A stretch of 64,000 bases of DNA, from contig NZ_CP048387.1 in the NCBI RefSeq assembly GCF_010365785.1, positions 186,001 to 250,000 of the forward strand, written 5' to 3'. The stretch is from Spiroplasma sp. TIUS-1. Lineage in GTDB: Bacteria; Bacillota_I; Bacilli_A; Mycoplasmatales; Mycoplasmataceae. Made by a program: the position numbers and the translations under genes. Within the stretch, counting starts at the first letter, position 1. Every line of letters starts with the position of its first letter. The notes beneath the pieces are model-generated. The model had not been told where the DNA came from. It saw only the letters and a list, made by a program, of their open reading frames with translations, and made no database searches. Shown piece by piece: positions 44,964 through 57,860 of the stretch.

Positions 44964-45935
44964 ATGAAAAGATACTTAGCTCACGAAATTCCAAAATGGT
45001 TATTAAAAGAATATATTGATTATTTTTTGAAAAATAAGAAAAATGTTAAAGGGATTTTTTTTGATAATGACACCATCAAAATAAATGACGTAAATAATGA
45101 AACAATAAATTATTGAGCAACAACGGAGGGAATTTATTCAAAATTCCAAATTGATAATGACTCAACTAAATATCTAGAAAAAATTTGATCGGAGATTGAA
45201 AAGTCAATTTATGATATTAATTTCAAATTACTTAATTATCCTAATTATGAGCTTTCTATTAATGAATCGGAATTATTTTTGGCATTTTTTTCAATTATTG
45301 AATACAGAATAAAGTTTGAAAATTTCACAAAGATTAGTTGAAATAAATTTGATAGGGAATTTAAGTATAAATACACATTAAAAAACTCTGATGTTGTAAT
45401 TATAAAAACTGGAATAAGTCCGTCGGCAATTTATTTGAAAAGTGATGAGGTGTACATTGATGAGGGCAAACTTAAATGTATCTGGTTTAATGGGTATTTG
45501 GCAATATTGTTAAAAAAAGGCTTTCATTTAGAAGCAACATTAAGTGGCGAAAAATATAAAATTAATTTCATATCGAAAAAACATTTAGAAGAAAAGACTA
45601 ATTTTTTTTGCGATTCAGAATATTTGGATTCTATTACAACAACAATTGATATTGTAAAAAAAACAACAAAAAAACAACCAGAACAATATTGAGATGAGTT
45701 GCGTGAATCATTTTTAATGTATATTTTTCTAAAACAAAACAGCAATTTTAGAAAAAATATGATGATGGAAAAAAGAACTGGAATTATTTATTCCGAAACT
45801 GAGAATGGTAGCATCGAAGAAATAATTAGAACTAGAGTTGCAAAAGAAAAAATAAATGAAAACAGTCCTATTTCTTTAAGGGCTAATCAAACATTAAATA
45901 AATTAATCCCATTCAATGTATTGAAAAAAAAGTAA
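44964..45935 (+). CDS. Hypothetical protein
   Basis: This 323-residue, basic, soluble protein is read through several TGA tryptophans. I see no signal peptide, membrane segment or known motif. It is Lys-, Ile- and Asn-rich. TATAAT lies exactly six bases before the ATG, so the mRNA is probably leaderless. It is convergent with the HEPN-like gene, 23 bases between stops. The position at the edge of the accessory region hints at a strain-specific role, but nothing shows the function. Confidence 0.6.
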
Positions 45936-45958: not shown

Positions 45959-46711
45959 CTATTTTTGTAACATCTTAGCATATAAATTTTTGGGCAATTC
46001 CCTTATGGTTAGTTTGTCTCATTTTGAAGTTAATTTAATTAGATAATACAAAACAATATAAATTAAAATCCAAATATGCTCTTTAAAATGAAAATTTGAT
46101 GTTCAAATTTGAGAATAGTTGTCTATTGTAAAAAATATTGTTCTATGTTCAAATATGTTTCTAGCATCTTTTATACCATCATTAAATATTGGATAGTTAA
46201 AATCATCAATAAATTCATTGTATTTTTTTTTGCTAAAACTTATGTTTTTTATCTTATTTTCGATAACTTCCCACTCTGTTTCATTAAACATATCAAATTC
46301 AAATTTATTATATTCTGATAACATAAAATTTAATGTTGTCGCCTTATCTAATAAGGAATAAATAAATAAAATAAATGACTTTATATTATGGTGGAGCGGC
46401 ATATAAAATTTTGTTTCTTGAAAATTATTTAAAATATTATTACTTTGTTTTAAATATTCTTTGATGTATAGAAATGAAAATTTAAATTCAACCATTCATT
46501 TTTTGTTAAAAATTGATTTTTCATCAATAAGTAATCAATCGATAAACTCAAAAAAAACACTTTCCATTTCATTCACCATTTCAACAATTCCTGTTTCCCT
46601 TGAAAATTCTTCTGCTTCTTTTTGAGAACTATTTATACTAGTTCTTGAATTTAATTTTTTTAGATATTCATAGAAATAGTTAACTTTTCTCAAAAATAAA
46701 TCTCTCATCAT
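45959..46711 (-). CDS. HEPN-like helical protein
   Basis: The product is a 250-residue, mostly helical protein. DARNIFEHRT near residue 195 contains RNxxxH, the RX4H signature of HEPN-superfamily RNases, in the expected place near the end of a helical bundle and before a last hydrophobic helix (HIWILIYIVLYYLIKL). The general shape resembles Cthe_2314-type HEPN proteins. Such domains occur in toxins and defence systems. GAGG lies before a double ATG; the first was chosen, and the second, three bases inside, is equally possible. The assignment rests on one motif and predicted helicity. Confidence 0.5.
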
Positions 46712-46811: not shown

Positions 46812-47582
46812 ATGACATTAACAACATTAATTCTTACAGAATTATTTGGTACAGCACTTCTAGTATTACTAGGGAATGCAATTGTTGCCAATGTAGTATT
46901 CAAAAAAACTAATGGTGAAAATTCTGGATGAACTGCTATTTCAATCGGATATGGTTTTGCAGTAGCAGTAGCTGCTTTCATTGCAGCATTATCTGGTGGA
47001 GCAGCTCACTTAAACCCAGCTGTATCTCTTGCAGTTTTAATTGGATCAAACTTTGAACCATTTGCTGGTGGAGAAGCATGATGAATAATCTTAGCTATTG
47101 CAGCTCAATTAGTTGGAGCAGTATTAGGACAAGTTTTATTAAACTTAGTATTCTTAAATTTCATTAAAGCTGCTATGAAATCTGGAGATGAATTCCAAGT
47201 AGCAAACGTACGTGGAATGCACGTTACAGGTATCAATGAAGAAGCAAACAGCAAATTGCCAGCATTACTTGCTGAGTTCTTAGGAACTGCAGTATTAGTT
47301 GCAATCGTTTGTGGATTTGCAGTTTCTGGGACTGCATTCGCAGCAGGAATTGGATCATTCGGACCATTATTAGTAGGACTTGCAATTATGATTGTAGGGT
47401 TTGGATTAGGTGGAACTACAGGTTTCGCATTAAACCCAGCACGTGACTTAATGCCAAGACTAGTTTACCAATTAATGCCAGGAACAAAAGTTAGTGCACA
47501 ATGATCATATTCATGAGTACCAGTTGTAGGACCATTAGCTGCTGGAGCAGTTGTTGGACTAATCTTTAATTTAGCATTTTAA
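46812..47582 (+). CDS. glpF: Glycerol facilitator (aquaporin family)
   Basis: This 256-residue channel for glycerol and water has six membrane segments. The two half-helix motifs are HLNPAVSLAV (near residue 68) and ALNPARDLMPRLVYQ (near residue 208); the Asp after the second NPAR is the mark of glycerol facilitators. AAGGAG precedes the ATG. It feeds glycerol metabolism. A decayed paralogous 3' end lies at 49587-49754, on the far side of the DUF2075 gene. Confidence 0.95.
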
Positions 47583-47691: not shown

Positions 47692-49572
47692 ATGATAATT
47701 TACAGAAATACAAAAGAAGGTTTTATTAAAGATATATTAAATGGAAATACGTCAGATATTATTTTAGAAAATTTTAAAAAGCATGGAATAGCCGGTGGTG
47801 GATCAAGTGAATATAGATCTTGAAATAATTCATTAGAACATATGAACACAATAATTTCTAATACCCTAATGCCAAATGATGTAATGGTTTACATTGAGTA
47901 TGGCATTCCATCGCTGAACAAAAGGGTTGACTTTTTAATTTCTGGAAAATCAAAAGATAATAAAAATACAATAATTTTCATTGAATTAAAACAATGACAA
48001 AAAGCAGAAGTAGTTTTAGAAAAACATGGTATTGTTAAAACTGCTTTAGGTGGAGGATTAAGAGAAACAACTCATCCTTCATATCAAGTAACTAGTTATA
48101 TTGATTATATGAAAGACTACTCTAAAATTTTAAGCAATGAAGAAATTAGATTACTTCCTTGTTCGTTCTTACATAACTATAATGAATCAAAAACTGAACC
48201 AATATTAAATGTTATATATAAAGAAATATTGGACAAAGCCCCTGTATTTTTTAGAAACGATAGATTAGAAATGATCAAATTTATTAATGAGAATATTTCA
48301 TTAAGTGACGATAGTAACTTATTTGAAGCAATTGATAAGGAAGATAGAAAACCTTCAAAGTCATTAATTGATTATGCTGGCGGAATGCTTAAAGGTAATA
48401 AAGAGTTTGTTTTATTAGATACTCAAAAAGTTATTTATGAAGAATGTTTGCTATTAAGTAAAAAAACAAATGAACACAAAAAGAAAGTTTTAATTATTAA
48501 GGGTGGACCTGGTACTGGTAAAACTGTATTGGCTTTTAATCTTCTTTCAACTATGCTGCGAGATGGTTTAAATGCAAAGTATGTTTCTAAAAACTCATCA
48601 TTGAGAGATGTTTTTAAAGATAAGGTTGCATCAAATAAAGATATTAAAGAGTTTAATAAAAGCAGAATGAATACCTTATTAATGGGATCTGGTTCATTTA
48701 TTGAAAGTAATTGAAATGAATATGATTGTTTAATTGTGGATGAAGCTCAAAGATTAAATTTGAAATCAGGTATGTTTAAAAATAAAGGTGAAAATCAAAT
48801 TAAGGAAATAATTAATTCATCTAGATTACCAATATTTTTTGTCGATGATAACCAAGTAGTTACAAGTAGTGATATAGGTAGTGTTGATGCCATTGTAAAT
48901 GTTGCAAAAGATATAAATATTTCAGAAGAACAAATAATAATTATGGAATTAGATTCACAGTTTAGATTAAATGGTTCAAATGGATACTTACAATGAATCG
49001 ATAATGCATTATGTATAAAAGAAACTCCGGTAAATATATTAGACAAAAACGAAATAAATTATGATTTCAGAATTTATGATGATGTGTTAAATATGTATCA
49101 AAACGTTTATAAATTAAATTCTAAAAATAATAAATCTCGTGTAATGGCTGGATATTGTTGAGATTGAAAAAGTAAAAACAATAAAACTGTTAATGATATT
49201 GTTATAGGTAATTTTGAAAAACAATGAAACCATAATACAACCTGATCTATAGAAAAAAACTCAATTGATCAAATTGGTTCAATACATACAGCCCAAGGAT
49301 TAGAGTTTGAATATGCCGGAGTAATAGTTGGCGATGATCTAGACGTAGTTAATGGAGCGTTGGTTGCAAACTTTGAAAGCAAGGCAAAAACAGATCAAAC
49401 ACTAAAAGGTTTAAAAGCTCTTATTAAAGAAGGTGACTCAGAAGCTATTAAAAAATCTAGTGATATCATTAAAAATACTTATAGAGTTTTATTGACTAGA
49501 GGTATGAAAGGAACTTTCGTATATTTTACAAATAAGAAAGTTGAGAAATATTTCAAGGAATTGATCAAATAA
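47692..49572 (+). CDS. DUF2075 (Schlafen-like) helicase with PD-(D/E)XK-like N-terminus
   Basis: The 626-residue protein begins with about 250 residues that contain VDFLISG followed, about 12 residues later, by IIFIELKQW, the D...ExK pattern of a PD-(D/E)XK nuclease fold. Then comes a DUF2075 SF1-type helicase: GGPGTGKTV near residue 271, LIVDEAQRL, FVDDNQ, SQFRLNGS and HTAQGLEFEYAGVI, with TRGMKGT near the end. Proteins of this class occur in phage defence and restriction loci. A TATAAT box lies 23 bases upstream. The gene sits between intact glpF and a decayed glpF end. Confidence 0.75.
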
Positions 49573-49586
49573 TTTTAAAAATTAAT

Positions 49587-49754
49587 TTACCAACTACAGG
49601 TTTCCCGGTAAATCCAGTACGTGATTTAATGCCAAGACTTATTTACCAAGTAATGTCTGGAACAAAAGCTAGTGCACAATGATCGTGCGCTTGAGTACCA
49701 GTCGTTGGACCATTAGCTGCTGGAGCAGTTGTTGGAGCATTATTCTTAATTTAA
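49587..49754 (+). pseudogene. Decayed 3' end of a second glpF
   Basis: The frame encodes TTGFPVNPVRDLMPRLIYQ followed by sequence close to the last 55 residues of GlpF, including VPVVGPLAAGAVVG. The second NPA motif is changed to NPV. The 5' four fifths of the gene is missing and no start is present. DNA similarity to 47415-47582 is strong but with many third-position changes, so it is an older paralogue remnant rather than a fresh copy. Confidence 0.85.
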
Positions 49755-49820
49755 TTTTCGCTAGTATTTAATGAATTCTATTTCTGTTAAAATAAAGTTA
49801 ATTAAAAATTGAAGGAATAT

Positions 49821-50978
49821 ATGAATCAAAAAAATAAATATTTAAACTTTAATAACGGTGCTCAAATTTTAATGACTGATGAAAATTTTCAAAGACACCA
49901 ACGTATGCTAAAAAATTCTTTCAAAAATTTATACTTAGGATTTTCGAAAGAATTTAAATTAACTGGAGTTGAATCTTTTATTAGTTTAGATTCTGAATAT
50001 AATTTCGAAAAAACAGATTATATTGAATTTAAAAATGGTGATATTAATCACAGGGTGTATCTTAGGGAAATAAAAAATTCCGGTCAGAAAGATGTACACA
50101 AAAAAAGAATACATATTGAACCAAAAATGTATTGTGAAAATAAAATTGTAAGTGTAATCGGACTTCTTTCTTTGGGTAACGAAACGCTATATTGCGTTAC
50201 TGATTACTTAAATGAATATATCGAAAGTAAATTTATTAAAACTGATAATTCATTAAAAAATAATTCATCACTTTGAATAAATCAAGAAGATATGATGCTT
50301 GTCATTCAAAATAAGGAAGTTGATTTCTTTATAAATTCTCACGGTTCTTTAATGACAAAATCTATAAATATTGCAATCGAATCTTTCAATAAGAATAAGG
50401 AAATGATTGCTCCAAAACGAGTTTCAGCAGATCAAATTAACACTATAAAGGATAAAACTGATAAAAAATTAAAATCAAAAAATGATAATAATGTTGAGAA
50501 AGGGTTTGGGATAGATGATTTGTTTGATTTTATAATTGATGGTTCTTCAATAGTTCCTGATTTTGACTGAGAAAAATCAGTTGATATTGAAAATAATAAT
50601 AAGTTAATTCGAAATAAAAATATTATTCAAGAATTAATTTCTTTAAATAATGAGTGCTTCAATTGCAAAACTAAGACTACATTTGATAGACGTAATGGTA
50701 ATGGTATGCAATACTTTGAATTCCACCACTTCATTCCATATAACTATAGGGTACAAAAGAAATTTAAAAAGACCTTGGATTCAAAATTGAATATAATTGC
50801 TTTATGTGTTTCTTGTCATAAGGGATTACACCTTTCTTCAAGAGAAATTCAAGAAAAAATGATTATGAATATATACAAAAATAAAGTTAATGATGAATTC
50901 ATTAAATACTACCCAAATATAAAAACAGATGAATTACTAAATATTTATTGAGAATTGTTTAATCAGGAGGAAAAATAA
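49821..50978 (+). CDS. HNH endonuclease, first of the restriction-modification module
   Basis: This 385-residue protein has a unique N-terminal region of about 270 residues and a C-terminal HNH domain: ECFNC near residue 279, FEFHHFIPYNY near residue 300, LNIIALCVSCHKGLHLS near residue 325. The two CxxC pairs would hold a structural zinc and the His residues a catalytic metal. The N-terminus may bind DNA or a partner. GAAGGAA precedes the ATG. The gene overlaps the ribosome binding site of the GHKL gene. The HNH domain closely resembles that of the last gene of the module. Confidence 0.8.
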
Positions 50979-50980
50979 AA

Positions 50981-52660
50981 ATGGAAAATAAAAATAGCAA
51001 TTATAAAGCGCTGGATATTAGACCAAAAACCAGCATCTTTGAAACTTATAAAAAATATAACTATAAACCACATTTTGCGTTGGCTGAGTTTGTTGATAAT
51101 TCAACAGCTAGTTTTTTTGATAATAAAGAAACATTAAATGAGTTTTACAGTTCTAAAGGCATTAATGGATTTCAATTAAAAGTTTATATTTTATACATAA
51201 AAAATGAAACTGGTTTAAAAATTCAAATTATTGATAATGCTTTTGGTATGGATAGCGCAAACTTCAGAAGGGCTATTGTTTTAGGGGAAAAACCCAAAAT
51301 CAAAACTGGTAGAAATGAATTTGGCATGGGACTTAAAACTGCAGCAACTTGATTCGCTAATAAGTGATCAATTAAAAGTACTCAATTAGGTTCTAATGAA
51401 GAATACAGTGTTGTTATGGATATTGATAACATTGTCGAAACAGGTGTTGATAGTGTAAATGTGATTACAAACAGTGTAGATGAGAATAAACACTATACAA
51501 TTTTGACTCTTGAAAAGTTAAATAAAACATTACCTAATAGAAATAAAAAAAACTTAATGAATTTATTAACTGGTATTTATAGAAAAGATATTTTAGATCA
51601 AAACATTAGTATTGTTTATGCAGAAAATATGGGTGGTAAATGAGAAGATGTTAATGGAAATAAATATGATAAATTTCAACATATACCACCATTTTCATAT
51701 GAACCTGTAAAACCTAGAATTATTAAAGTTGGAGAATTACCAAATGTTGAGGAAGGAACTGTTTGTGTAAAACAAATTGATGAAACATTAGTGTTTAATG
51801 GGATATCTCACAAAATTACAGGTTTTATTGGTTTAAGGGACAAGGGAAGTAGAGCGCTGGCTGGATTTGCATTATTTAGAAGAGGAAGGGCCATTATTGG
51901 TGGTTTTGAAAATAATTATAGACCCAAAGAAATTTATGGAGATTCTGGTAGTTATACTTATCAAAGATTGTATGGAGATATTAATTTAGATAGTTTTCCA
52001 GTTAACCAAGCTAAAGACGGCTTTAGTTGAGATGACGGTTTAGAGGAGGCATTTATTGAAATGTTGATCCCCATTTGTAAAGAGTATAAATCTATAGCAA
52101 ATAAATTAAGAGTAAATGAAGAATCTGCACATAACAATATTTCAATAGAACAAGCAAATGCTTCTAACCAAATATTGGAAAAAGTTTTAGGTGGAACAAT
52201 TACTTCAATTGACAATTTAAAATCAAGCAATGATATTGCTCCGGAAATATTAGCAATGTATAGCGAAGATATAAAAGAATATAATAATAAACTTTCTTCG
52301 AAACATTTAGATTCAAAAATTGTATTCAAATCAGGTGATAAATTGAATATTGAGATGTTTTTCAAAATAAATACAAATCCAAATCCTAAAGAGTGATTAA
52401 ACATATCTGTCTTAGATGAGGAGTTTAGACAATATAAATTTTCTTTAAATATTGAACATAAGTTCTTTAAACCGTTCTCAGAGAATTCAGAATTTATTAT
52501 TTTCATTAAAGATTTTGCATCTGCGTATGCTGCATCAATAATTAAAAGTAGAGTTGGTTCACCAAGTAATATGGTAGATCCTATAAGTATTACAGATTCA
52601 ATAAATAAATATTTAATTGCATTGGCAGAAGAACAAAACATGCAACAAGTAGAGGAATAG
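50981..52660 (+). CDS. MORC/MutL-type GHKL ATPase of the restriction-modification module
   Basis: The 559-residue protein has the GHKL ATP site: N-box in LAEFVDNSTAS (Glu36, Asn40), the DNAFGM box at residues 85-90, and the glycine-rich FGMGLKTAAT at 114-123. An S5-like second domain follows (GFIGLRDKGSRALAGFALFRRGRAIIGG). It matches the prokaryotic MORC-like ATPases found with Z1 proteins and methylases in restriction loci. AGGAGG precedes the ATG, inside the HNH gene end. It starts two bases after that gene. It probably clamps or remodels DNA on ATP binding. Confidence 0.85.
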
Positions 52661-52661
52661 T

Positions 52662-54782
52662 GTGGGTACATTTTTAAATAAATTCATAGAGATTTATAAC
52701 AATAAAATTGGAACTCAAGGAGTTGAAGAAATTGTTGATAAGTCTAACCAAATATTAGAGGCATCGCTAAAAAGCGATGGGTTTTTCAATAATGAAACTG
52801 GTCTATTGGTTGGTAAAGTTCAGTCTGGTAAAACTTCAAACTTCTTGGGGTTATCTGCAGCAGCCTTTGACAATGATGTAGATGTGATTTTTCTTATTGG
52901 TGGTGTCGACAATACATTATTTAAACAAAACATAAAAAGGGTTAAAGAGGTATTTTCGAATGTAAGAAGCAAATCTGGTATAAGCAGACTTTGTGAAATT
53001 AAATCGTCAAATGAATTAAAAAATTTTCACAGCATTACATTAGAAGGAAATAAAAAATTAATAGTTCCGGTTTTAAAAAATACAGATCATTTTAAATATG
53101 TAGTAAAGTTTTTAGAATATAATAAAGATTTTTTTAAATCTAAAAATGTAATTATAATTGACGACGAAGGCGATCAAGGATCTCTGGATGGTAATGCAGC
53201 TAGTGATAAAAGAACTAATAAAACAAAATGAAATCAATTAATATTAAAAATAAGAAGTAATCTTGAACATCATTTATATTTAACTGTTACGGCAACTCCT
53301 TACGCAAATTTCTTGTTGGACGAAATTGAAGTACTTTCACCAAATTTTATTAAAGTTTCTAAACCAGGAAAAGGATATATGGGACTAAACACATTTCATG
53401 ATGATAATGAAAATATGATTGTTGAAGTTGATGATGATGAAGCTGAAGAATTAGGTATAAAAACAGAAAGCGATATTAATTGAACAAGTCCACCGGAATC
53501 ATTGAGAACTGCAATTTCTTATTTTGTTTGAGCGTCACTTAAAAAGTTTGATATTAATAATGCTAATGAACCATTCGAAATGTTGGTTAATGCAAAAAGA
53601 GACATTGATGATCATAAATATATACGCAATTTAATTAGAGGATTTGTAAATGAACAAATAAAGTTTAGTAAATTAAATTGAACCGATTTAAGGTTTATTG
53701 GTACATTTAAAGATTTTGCTAATCTAGGATTTAAAATGCTATTTGGAAGAAAAATCGATATAAAATTGGATAAAGAACTGCTTGAAAATTTTTGCGAATT
53801 ATTAAATTCTCTAAATATTGAAATGATAAATTCGTCAACTGAAACTGGCGTCAACATAGAATCTATAAAACAAAATTCTGATCTAGTTATTTATGTTGGC
53901 TCTGACTTACTTGGGAGGGGAATTACAATTGATAAGTTAATTGTTACTTATATAACTAGAAGTGCAAAAAGCAAAAACAATGCAGATACAACCTTGCAAA
54001 GAGCTAGGTGATTTGGTTATAGGGAAAAATATAAAGATGTAATTAAAGTTTTTATGACTAGAAAAATAATAAATTTCTTTGAAAGTATAAGCACAATGGA
54101 AGAAGAACTTTGATCGTCTTTAGAATTGGTAGATAATGGAAACATGTCAATTGAAGAATTTTCAGGAAGTTTGTTTTTATCTCTTCCAGAAGATCTGAGA
54201 CCGGCTAGAAGTAATATAGCTAAAACTAAATACGTATCAGTTAGAAAGTGACAAAGACAAAACTCATTCTTTAAAACTTCAAAAGGAGAATTTAGTTTCA
54301 CTGACATTATTAAAACTGGAGATGATTTTGAATATTTTGGACAGAAGAAGTTTTTTGTCAAAGAATTTAAAACGTGAGATGACTTCTCTGAGGTTTCTAA
54401 TATCAATAATATAATTTTAGAAAAAATTAATTTAAAGCTAAGTTTCTTCAAACCTGATAGTAACTTTTTTAACAAAAAAGTTAAAGTAATATTATTTGAA
54501 TCAAGCGACAGCAGACCTTACAAACGTTCTGTTAAAGAACTTGACAACTCAACTTTCTTCACACTGTTCGGTCGAGGTGCGGAAAAAGATCTCGATTTAA
54601 ATAATGAAGATAAATATTTGGGTGATAGCAATTTACATATGTATAATTCTAATAAAGATATGATTCTAATTCAAATTCATAAACTTAATTTTGAGTTTAA
54701 TTCTAAGGAACCTATTCCAGGTGTGGCTTACGCGCTTTATATACCGGGAATAGAAATTAGTGGGTATGAAAAGAGTAACTAA
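52662..54782 (+). CDS. Z1-domain ATPase of the restriction-modification module
   Basis: This 706-residue SF2-like ATPase has Walker A GKVQSGKTS at about residues 51-59, an IIDDEGDQ Walker B near residue 163, TATPYAN near 210, LLGRGITIDK near 419 and the Z1 hallmark QRARWFGYR near 446. Z1 proteins pair with GHKL ATPases and methylases in restriction-modification loci. The start codon is GTG one base after the GHKL stop, the only non-ATG start I assign in this window; the ribosome binding site AGAGG lies inside the GHKL end. Confidence 0.88.
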
Positions 54783-54799
54783 AAAAGGAAATTTCTTAT

Positions 54800-56092
54800 A
54801 TGGGTAAAATTAGGTTTATAGATTTATTCGCAGGAATAGGCGGTTTTCATAAAGCTTTGGAAAAAACTGCTGCTATAACAAAAGATGACATTGAGTGTGT
54901 TTTTGTTAGCGAAATAGATAAAGAGTCAATCAAAACTTATTCTGGAAATTTTAATATCGATAAAGAAAAAATTATTAATATTAGAAATGTTGATTCTGAA
55001 TGTTCTCAGGTACCTGATCATGATTTTTTATTCGCCGGATTTCCATGTCAAACATTTTCAAATGCTGGTAATAAAAAAGGGTTTCTTGATGAAATTAGGG
55101 GTACACTTTTTTTTGATATAGCAAAAATTTTACACAAGAAAAAACCAAAATATATTTTATTAGAAAATGTTAAACACTTAGTTAATCATGACAATGGTAA
55201 AACTTGAAAAATAATTATAGAAAAATTAATTGAAATTGGATATATGGTCCCTGATGTTAATAATCCATTAATTTTATCTCCTCATCAATTTGGAATTCCT
55301 CAAGATAGAAAGAGGGTATTTATACCTGGTTATTATGTGGGGCCAGAGGTGGCAAAAAATGAAAGTTTAGATTTGGATTTTTCAGAATATAATCAGACTT
55401 CATTCAATCTAAACTACAGTGAACCCATGGAAACAAAAAAATATATTTGAGATAATTTTTTAGAAAAAAATGTTAGTGAAGAATATTATCTAAATGAAGG
55501 AAGTTATTTAGTTAAAGTTTTTGATGCTTGAAATGAGTTTTTAAAAAATGTGAAACGAAATTCAGGTAGAACTTTACCGGTGATCTGAGCGAGTGAATTT
55601 GGGAAAAATTATGACATTTCAGATTTACCTAATTGAAGAAAAAAATATATTTCAGATATGAGGGAAATATACAAAAATAATAAAAATTTTATTGATGCTT
55701 GAATTGAAAAATATAATGTTCTTTCTTGAAAAAAAAGAGAACAAAAATTTGAATGACAAGCCGGTGTAGACATGGATGATATTCATGATTCATTCATTCA
55801 GTTGAGACAATCAGGGATTAGATGTAAAAGACCGATAAAATTTCCCACTTTAGTAGCTATGGTTCAAATACCAATTGTTTTTGAAAAAGGAGTAAATAAA
55901 TGAAGATATTTGACACCTGGTGAAGTTGGTAAACTTCAAAGTTTCCCCACTGATTATAAAAATTATGTTGATATAGAAAAAAACTCAAATAATTTTTATG
56001 CCTATAAACAATTTGGAAATTCAGTAAATGTTGAGATAGTATCTATAATTCAGCAAGAACTAATTAAAAAAGTGAGGTTTAAGAATGAGTAA
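54800..56092 (+). CDS. DNA (cytosine-5) methyltransferase
   Basis: The 430-residue enzyme has the C5-methylase motifs in order: I DLFAGIGG (residues 8-15), IV GFPCQTFSNAG near 79 with the catalytic Cys, VI LLENVKHL near 120, VIII QDRKRVF near 168, IX GEVGKLQSFP and X FGNSVNVEI near 404. The target-recognition region between VIII and IX is about 190 residues. It probably protects host sites from the module's nuclease. AAAAGGAAA precedes the ATG, 17 bases after the Z1 gene. Its end overlaps the next gene by eight bases. The recognition sequence cannot be read from the protein. Confidence 0.93.
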
Positions 56093-56927
56093 AAAAGAAA
56101 GAGTTCCTTATTCGAAAAAAGATACCTTAATTTGCATAGAAGCTTTCTTTAAGTTTGTTAATTTTGAAGATTTAGTTAAAGGTTCAATTAAAAAAAGTAT
56201 GAAAAAATATATTTTTGAAAATGTTGATGATTATAAAATAAGAAAAAAAAGTTCTTGAGATACTAAAATAGATGATATCCATTGAGCATTTAGATATATA
56301 ATTGGTTTACCTCCTAAAGGAACTCCTGGTGGCGGAAAGAGTGTTTTGAATGATGTTATGAGGTTTATTGCTAAAACTGAGTTTATAAATGCAAAACCCG
56401 ATAACTTTTCAGAAAAGTGAAATAAAATATCAGTTAATAAAAAAGAAATTCCGGATCCTAGTGATTTTAATGTCAAACTTGATAAAAAATCAGTTACATT
56501 AAAAAATCGTTTAATAAGAAATCAAAAACTTTCAAAGCAATATTTAGACAAAAATAGAGTTTGTGAATTTTGCAAAAAAACTGAAACATTTATAGGTTTA
56601 AAGGGTACTATGTATTTTGAGGTTCATCACTATGTTCCGTATAATTATGAAATACAAAAGGATTATAAATTAAATTTAGATAACTATTATAATTTAATAT
56701 CGCTATGTGCAGAGTGTCATAGAAAAATTCATTTATCAAGAGATAGGGCACTTATGATAACTGATTTATTTAATTACAAATTAAATAAAGATAAAAAATT
56801 TAAAGATATTTTAAATGGCTATGATGTATTTAAAGTTATTGCCGATTATGAAAAAACATATAATTCAAATATAAACTATGAATTTATAAAAATTAATGAA
56901 TTAAAAATAATAGATAATAAAAAATAA
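56085..56927 (+). CDS. HNH endonuclease, last of the restriction-modification module
   Basis: The 280-residue protein has about 155 unique N-terminal residues, with a GLPPKGTPGGGKSV segment, then an HNH domain: VCEFCKKTE near 160, FEVHHYVPYNYEIQ near 180, LISLCAECHRKIHLS near 205. The HNH half strongly resembles that of the first gene (EVHHYVPYNY against EFHHFIPYNY), while the N-terminal half does not. The start overlaps the methylase stop by eight bases, with GAGG upstream. It is probably the cognate restriction enzyme or a subunit of it. Confidence 0.85.
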
Positions 56928-56949
56928 TCCAATATGGATTATTTTTTAT
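56922..56949. terminator. Bidirectional terminator ending the module
   Basis: AATAATCC and GGATTATT flank AATAT, with A before and T after. It lies over the stop codon of the last HNH gene and next to that of the convergent membrane protein. Confidence 0.8.
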
Positions 56950-57860
56950 TATCTATTATTGTTTTGTTGAGCTTCGTATTCTTTTCTTTCATCTAGTTTT
57001 GTATATACTTTGTATTCTAGAGCATCACTGTTTGGAGATGATCAAATACCTTTTAAAGTAGATATACAGATTGTTCAAATAAATTGAACATATCAGAATT
57101 GTAAAAACACCATCATTAAACTTAGGATAAAGATGAAAGCATTATCTCTGTTGTTCACTGCATTGCTAATAGTTTGTAGTAATCTTAATACTGCCAATAA
57201 CATAATTCATACAACAGTAATTGTTGCTATTACTAAAGCTATGATTGAAAATACGATTTGTACTGGATATATTCCAGTTTTGTTTACAAATGATTCTTCA
57301 GAAGATTTTAATCAAAATAGTGGAAGTGAAATTAAACTTACTAATCCAATTCCTCCTAATACATAAAATGTTATTAAAACATTTGAATCATTTAATACGT
57401 TAAATTGTTGTCCATATAATGCAAGTGATCCACCTGTGATAACACTTAACACTAATCCAGCCATTCCATAATGTTTACCAATAACAAATTTAGGGTTCAT
57501 TCTGGCATTGTTATTAGAAGTTTGCATATTTGGTAAGTTACTTAACATGAATGGTGTCATAATACCTTGTATTCCAATTGAGAATACACTTAAGATATAA
57601 CGGTTTGCAATTAATTCATCATCTGATGAATTTTTAACAAAATTTAAAATAATTAATGTGAAGTAAATGTTTGCTGAACACATTGCTATAAGGGCTGTAA
57701 CTATTAATGCAAACTCTGCTGCATTTTCTGGTTCACCCATTGATGTTGCTTGATTCAATGAAGCTAAAATTCCAAAAGTTAAAACAATTGAAAAAATTAA
57801 ACCAACTATATTAAATAGTTTTAACATAGATCTAACTTGGGATAGATTTGTATTATACAT
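56949..57860 (-). CDS. Multi-pass membrane protein of unknown function
   Basis: This 303-residue protein has about seven hydrophobic segments and a hydrophilic charged C-terminus (LDERKEYEAQQNNNR). Reading crosses several TGA tryptophans near the end. AGGAGGACT precedes the ATG. I do not recognise a family. It lies 75 bases downstream of the nitroreductase gene, after that gene's hairpin. Confidence 0.65.

What the first reader, a model, noticed from the sequence alone, without database searches (positions are those of the whole stretch)
49821..56927. Five-gene HNH - GHKL - Z1 - m5C methylase - HNH module
Five same-strand genes with gaps or overlaps of 2, 1, 17 and -8 bases encode an HNH nuclease, a MORC/MutL-type GHKL ATPase, a Z1 ATPase, a C5 methylase and another HNH nuclease. 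GHKL-Z1-methylase sets are known in restriction loci; as I know them, the nuclease is often a PD-(D/E)XK protein. Here two HNH proteins take that place. The system would couple ATP-dependent DNA clamping (GHKL), translocation or remodelling (Z1) and HNH cleavage, with methylation as self-protection.
Basis: partly seen in the sequence, partly recalled or inferred. Interest (0 to 1): 0.85.

Follow-up and report, generated by a model that had tools for sequence, protein, structure and literature searches.

The report
Restriction operon with swapped-in HNH nuclease
A bacterium without a cell wall carries a five-gene DNA-defence operon in which the cutting enzyme usual for this ATP-driven restriction system has been replaced by a different cutter; related genomes show that the ATP-using core is conserved while nucleases are exchanged around it.

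Summary
They encode an HNH protein (R1), a MORC-family GHKL ATPase, a Z1 ATPase, an m5C methylase and a second HNH protein (R2). The canonical relative, found across bacteria and archaea, is m5C methylase-MORC-Z1-PD-(D/E)XK (DUF4420-like): in 74 of 75 loci where a gene directly follows Z1, it is that protein. Six relatives in the same GTDB family, plus one Erysipelotrichaceae locus, carry R1 with MORC-Z1, and no PD-(D/E)XK gene of that family was found in any of those loci. R1's N-terminus is homologous to the MTaX1 domain of R-M systems; in another mollicute family the same N-terminus carries a NOV_C-type nuclease instead of HNH, a catalytic-domain swap. The methylase has moved between MORC-Z1 lineages. 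Best reading: an ATP-dependent restriction-modification system on the MORC-Z1 chassis, with R1 replacing the usual nuclease and R2 a second, exchangeable one. New variant of a known kind. Restriction, target site and the role of R2 are inferred, not shown.

The parts
49821..50978 (+). R1: MTaX1-like N-terminal domain plus C-terminal HNH nuclease (385 aa, table 4)
   Evidence: HNH PF01844; HNH domain like EcoKMcrA 6ghc; N-terminus matches MTaX1 proteins by profile-profile comparison, 90.8%, P 1.2e-6; conserved in 7 related loci
50040..50345 (+). MTaX1-like domain of R1 (about residues 74-175; motif KNSG..KR....NSS.W)
50598..50840 (+). HNH nuclease domain of R1 with zinc cysteines C279, C282, C329, C332 and H302/H303/N324/H333/H337
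   Evidence: invariant in all 8 R1 proteins
50981..52660 (+). MORC-family GHKL-S5 ATPase (559 aa)
   Evidence: HATPase_c_3; S5 motif GFALFRRGRAI fits the MORC motif GhXhhpXXRhl of Iyer 2008
52662..54782 (+). Z1 ATPase, SF2-like helicase motifs plus Z1 domain (706 aa, GTG start)
   Evidence: Z1 PF10593 E 1.7e-36; Walker A GKVQSGKT, DDEGD, and DTTLQRARWFG
54800..56092 (+). m5C DNA methyltransferase (430 aa)
   Evidence: DNA_methylase and dcm profiles; motifs PCQ, ENV, QDRKR, FGNSV; M.HhaI as closest solved structure
56085..56927 (+). R2: second HNH protein (280 aa), overlaps the methylase gene by 8 bases
   Evidence: HNH PF01844 E 5e-7; EcoKMcrA 6ghc E 4e-6; R2 family in L028, L029, L032
56541..56771 (+). 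HNH nuclease domain of R2 (about residues 153-229)
56911..56955 (.). terminator-like hairpin ending the operon
   Evidence: 20-pair stem followed by T-rich tail on both strands

Best explanation
The locus is an ATP-dependent restriction-modification system on the MORC-Z1 chassis in which the usual DUF4420-type PD-(D/E)XK nuclease has been replaced by R1, an MTaX1-like domain joined to an HNH nuclease. Proposed working: the m5C methylase protects host sites. R1 engages an unmodified or wrongly modified site through its MTaX1-like domain. The Z1 ATPase then remodels or translocates DNA from that site, as proposed for the Z1 protein of CglI. The MORC dimer clamps or loops DNA and licenses the R1 HNH domain to cut. 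R2 is an accessory nuclease in an exchangeable slot, perhaps a second cleavage arm governed by the same methylation. Shown here by sequence: gene intactness, catalytic residues, domain homologies, conserved order, mutual exclusion of R1 and the DUF4420-type gene at the loci read, and independent exchange of the methylase. Inferred: complex formation, translocation, cleavage, specificity and defence.
For: Canonical operon methylase-MORC-Z1-PD-(D/E)XK in 74 of 75 loci with a gene directly after Z1. R1 present and that nuclease not found in the 8 R1 loci. R1 full-length only at MORC-Z1 loci in 392 genomes. R1 N-terminus homologous to MTaX1 (90.8%) and to the N-terminus of the NOV_C-fused proteins in the same slot (96.4%), controls near zero apart from the HNH_2 N-termini (22%). 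MTaX1 is proposed to discriminate modified DNA and occurs in several R-M systems (PMC10853773); a MTaX1 protein beside a related operon matches a Type II REase profile. Z1 plus R protein plus m5C methylase is an experimentally shown ATP-dependent R-M system in CglI/NgoAVII (PMC4267653, PMC5737866).
Against: No m5C, restriction, ATPase or cleavage data. R1 divergence does not track the methylase target-recognition region once background is removed (partial r = -0.07, seven loci). Structure models were too poor to use. MTaX1 homology of the window protein rests on profile-profile comparison; Pfam itself detects it only weakly and only in L138 (E 5.5e-4, below cut-off). R2 is unexplained by the core scheme.
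Confidence: 0.6

Rival explanations
1. Two systems side by side: a self-sufficient Type II pair (m5C methylase + R2 HNH) and an ATP-dependent nuclease module (R1-MORC-Z1) that sits next to it and shares its methylation.
For: Methylase and R2 genes overlap by 8 bases. In L192 and L199 a methylase-HNH_2 pair stands beside a MORC-Z1-PD-(D/E)XK set, and in L030, L032 and L033 the methylase and an HNH/HNH_2 gene are neighbours. The methylase tree conflicts with the MORC and Z1 trees.
Against: In L028, L029 and L138 the methylase is at one end and the second nuclease at the other. L031 has no R2-family gene. Most canonical operons have the methylase directly before MORC with no second nuclease, so the methylase serves MORC-Z1 there.
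Confidence: 0.2
2. Type IV-like defence: R1 and R2 cut modified (for example m5C-bearing) foreign DNA, and the methylase has another role or marks DNA for them.
For: Both HNH domains are nearest to EcoKMcrA, a 5-methylcytosine-specific enzyme, and to the PADLOC Type IV profile. MTaX1 is suggested to discriminate modified DNA.
Against: Similarity to McrA is confined to the HNH domain. The gene for an m5C methylase is in every complete R1 locus read, which would be self-destructive for a nuclease that cuts the same mark.
Confidence: 0.1
3. The operon serves mismatch or short-patch repair or epigenetic regulation rather than restriction.
For: GHKL-nuclease-methylase combinations exist in mismatch and very-short-patch repair, and Iyer et al. 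allow occasional recruitment to repair.
Against: Patchy distribution: MORC matches in 37 of 320 genomes of the order, most of them weak; cassette exchange between lineages; copies on viral contigs and plasmids; no Vsr gene among the products.
Confidence: 0.05

Closest known systems
MORC / superfamily-II helicase R-M operons, third type (Iyer, Abhiman and Aravind 2008, PMC2292703)
   Same: MORC with its S5 motif, SF2/Z1 ATPase with the DThhQXuRhFG-type motif, m5C methylase, compact operon
   Different: The RE-fold E-D-ExK nuclease is missing; R1 (MTaX1-like + HNH) and R2 (HNH) are present instead. Iyer et al. report HNH with SWI2/SNF2-type MORC operons and with paraMORC1, not described in their text with this Z1 type
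CglI / NgoAVII ATP-dependent R-M (PMC4267653, PMC5737866)
   Same: m5C methylase, separate R nuclease and DEAD-Z1 ATPase
   Different: Three genes, PLD nuclease with B3 domain, no MORC; here HNH nucleases and a MORC
MZA anti-phage system (PADLOC / NCBIfam MzaB-MzaD)
   Same: GHKL ATPase and Z1 protein are distant homologues of MzaB and MzaC
   Different: Scores far below the curated cut-offs (19.9 vs 850; 112 vs 1500); no MzaD match among the window proteins
MTaX1 (PF20296) proteins of R-M systems
   Same: R1 N-terminal domain by profile-profile comparison
   Different: Typical members carry other C-termini or stand alone; R1 carries HNH
EcoKMcrA (PDB 6ghc)
   Same: Zinc Cys4 HNH nuclease domain in R1 and R2
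   Different: Similarity limited to the HNH domain; N-terminal parts do not match by sequence

Membership tests
MORC-SFII (Z1) R-M operon, Iyer 2008 third type | GHKL protein with MORC motif GhXhhpXXRhl in the S5 domain | tested here: met
   GFALFRRGRAI, G295/L298/R300/R301/R303 invariant in 9 homologues (motif)
MORC-SFII (Z1) R-M operon, Iyer 2008 third type | SF2 helicase with DThhQXuRhFG motif | tested here: met
   DTTLQRARWFG; one position is T where h is given, V or L in several homologues
MORC-SFII (Z1) R-M operon, Iyer 2008 third type | RE-fold nuclease with E-D-ExK motif in the operon | tested here: not met
   Profile of 74 such nucleases finds nothing in R1 or R2; no such gene between 49821 and 56927
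MORC-SFII (Z1) R-M operon, Iyer 2008 third type | DNA methylase in the neighbourhood | tested here: met
   m5C methylase
MZA | MzaB and MzaC at equivalog level | tested here: not met
   19.9 bits vs 850 and 112 bits vs 1500
MZA | MzaD PD-(D/E)XK protein | tested here: not met
   No match in the window proteins
CglI/NgoAVII | DEAD-Z1 ATPase and m5C methylase | tested here: met
   Z1, helicase motifs, methylase
CglI/NgoAVII | PLD-family nuclease with B3 DNA-binding domain | tested here: not met
   No PLD or B3 Pfam match in R1 or R2; HNH instead
MTaX1 (PF20296) proteins | N-terminal MTaX1 domain | tested here: inconclusive
   Profile-profile 90.8%, controls <= 0.3% apart from one 22%; Pfam detects it only in L138 below cut-off
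Restriction-modification system (function) | Methylation protects DNA against the nuclease | not testable with these tools
   Needs methylome and restriction assays

The most novel reading that the evidence does not exclude
MORC-Z1 is a general ATP-driven restriction chassis onto which unrelated nucleases (DUF4420-type, MTaX1-NOV_C, MTaX1-HNH) are plugged, while a methylase, often with its own HNH or HNH_2 nuclease, is exchanged separately. One methylation mark would then control two mechanistically different cleavage arms.
Probability: 0.35. Interest if true: 0.68.

Novelty: new variant of a known kind. Interest (0 to 1): 0.52.

Why it matters
Prokaryotic MORCs are the presumed source of eukaryotic chromatin MORCs (PMC2292703), and I found no biochemical study of a MORC-Z1 restriction system among the papers searched. 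The natural set of nuclease swaps on one ATPase core offers a direct way to ask what MORC and Z1 contribute independently of the cutter, and which subunit reads the site. It also gives a probable role to R1-type proteins, which Pfam annotates only as HNH, and widens the MTaX1 superfamily.

Tried and rejected
Table 11 reading: frames broken by TGA, rejected for table 4. Single-sequence scan of genome contigs with the window MORC: no relative confirmed. Phage records: no MORC homologue. R1 alignment against viral contigs: none confirmed; the L138 R1 against plasmids and phages: mainly HNH-domain matches covering at most 40%. Structure predictions: mean pLDDT 35.6 (R1, two sequences) and 44.9 (R2, single sequence), too poor, so no fold search was run. 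MORC and Z1 profiles: no solved structure by sequence. Alignment A5 held the wrong L138 protein by my mistake and was replaced by A6. HNH_2 proteins sharing the MTaX1-like domain: only weak signal (22-37% with R1-type N-termini, 1.1% with MTaX1 directly), not claimed. Coevolution of R1 with the methylase target-recognition region: none beyond background, few loci. Empty insertion site: in the other species of the genus the flanking 303-aa gene stands next to a different block (a phosphoglycerate-kinase-like and a GAPDH-like gene by their N-terminal sequences, my reading), but that species is too diverged to define insertion ends. Promoter-like sites are not above chance.

Full report
Observation. 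The window belongs to an 811,521-bp single-contig genome whose genes are intact only if TGA is read as tryptophan; under table 4 five genes are intact at 49821-56927 with the stated spacings. A terminator-like hairpin with a 20-pair stem lies at 56911-56955. R1 and R2 carry McrA-like zinc HNH domains. MORC, Z1 and the methylase keep their catalytic motifs. No PADLOC or NCBIfam model names the set as a system; the MZA models are hit far below their cut-offs.

What the normal form is. A profile search of one genome for each of 84,980 species found 423 MORC relatives, of which the best 80 were read, plus 15 loci from viral contigs. The operon is methylase-MORC-Z1-~315-aa protein almost everywhere, from Firmicutes and Bacteroidetes to archaea. 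In 75 loci (viral contigs included) a gene follows Z1 directly; 74 of these genes form one family with an E-D-ExK signature, i.e. a PD-(D/E)XK protein. The Rathayibacter plasmid member of the same slot is DUF4420 by Pfam. This corresponds to the third operon type of Iyer et al. 2008 (PMC2292703). The sample is biased towards MORCs like the window's.

What is different here. The one exception, L138 from an Erysipelotrichaceae metagenome-assembled genome, has methylase-R1-MORC-Z1-HNH_2. Six genomes of the window's own GTDB family have R1-MORC-Z1 too: methylase-R1-MORC-Z1-R2 (L028, L029), HNH_2-methylase-R1-MORC-Z1 (L030), methylase-R1-MORC-Z1 (L031), R2-methylase-(kinase-like gene)-R1-MORC-Z1 (L032), R1-MORC-Z1-methylase-HNH_2 (L033). 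Full-length R1 occurs in 7 of 392 genomes of the phylum, always at these loci. None of the six fetched regions has a match to the PD-(D/E)XK family profile. R1 and that nuclease thus exclude each other at the loci read, and R1 is the likely functional replacement. Whether such genes exist elsewhere in those genomes was not tested.

Domain swap. In three loci of another mollicute family (L195, L196, L198) the gene between methylase and MORC has an R1-like N-terminus fused to a NOV_C domain; its residues (..YDFxIN..IFIDVKGT..) look like a PD-(D/E)XK active site, which is my reading. Profile-profile comparison gives 96.4% between the two N-termini and 90.8% between R1 and MTaX1 proteins. Reversed, shuffled and unrelated controls are at or below 0.3%, except the HNH_2 N-termini at 22%, which are not a clean negative. 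MTaX1 has been proposed to discriminate modified DNA and occurs in several R-M systems (PMC10853773). MTaX1 genes also stand in related operons: alone in L106 and L200, as larger proteins in L073 and L118, with a Type II restriction enzyme profile hit for L073. So the N-terminal domain is constant and the catalytic domain changes.

Second nuclease. The R2 slot is variable: R2-type HNH (window, L028, L029, L032), HNH_2 (L030, L033, L138) or no R2-family gene (L031). Trees show that the window's methylase groups with those of L031, L033, L192 and L199 (65-69% identity, support 0.99), whereas MORC and Z1 of L199 fall elsewhere (33% and 28% identity to the window). The methylase has moved independently of MORC-Z1.

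Mechanism. By analogy with CglI, where the Z1 ATPase is active only with its R-protein on unmethylated sites and translocation is supported (PMC4267653, PMC5737866), R1 should supply recognition and cleavage, Z1 the motor, MORC the clamp or loop proposed by Iyer et al., and the methylase protection. The role of R2 is open. A simple test for co-specificity of R1 and the methylase target-recognition region was negative after correcting for background divergence, with only seven loci. The Type IV alternative rests on HNH similarity to EcoKMcrA, which covers only the nuclease domain.

Verdict. The feature is real and conserved, and it is a new variant of a known kind of ATP-dependent R-M operon. 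Function has not been demonstrated for this locus.

Noticed in passing
window 47692-49572 (+): Intact SLFN-g3/DUF2075-type helicase protein (626 aa) directly upstream, with PADLOC hits to AbiO, Nhi and PDC-S41 (E about 1e-14 to 1e-16); a second possible defence gene next to the operon.
   Followed up: partly
window 49572-49757 (+): Remnant of the 3' end of an aquaporin gene (66% identical to residues 194-256 of the intact gene at 46812-47582), so the helicase gene lies between a whole and a partial aquaporin copy; looks like a recombination scar.
   Followed up: partly
L195, L196, L198 (gene between methylase and MORC): R1-like N-terminal domain fused to a NOV_C domain instead of HNH.
   Followed up: yes
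L192, L199: MORC-Z1-PD-(D/E)XK beside a methylase-HNH_2 pair whose methylase is about 68% identical to the window's.
   Followed up: yes
L193 (G168:C1:156000-170000): MORC, Z1 and methylase each split into two or more open frames, a decaying copy of the canonical operon.
   Followed up: no
L031 781-5634: Two further divergent m5C methylase genes, a weak HNH_2 protein and a NOV_C protein downstream of the R1-MORC-Z1 operon, apparently a restriction cluster.
   Followed up: no
window 44964-45935 (+) and 45959-46711 (-): Two proteins of 323 and 250 aa without any Pfam match, upstream of the aquaporin gene.
   Followed up: no
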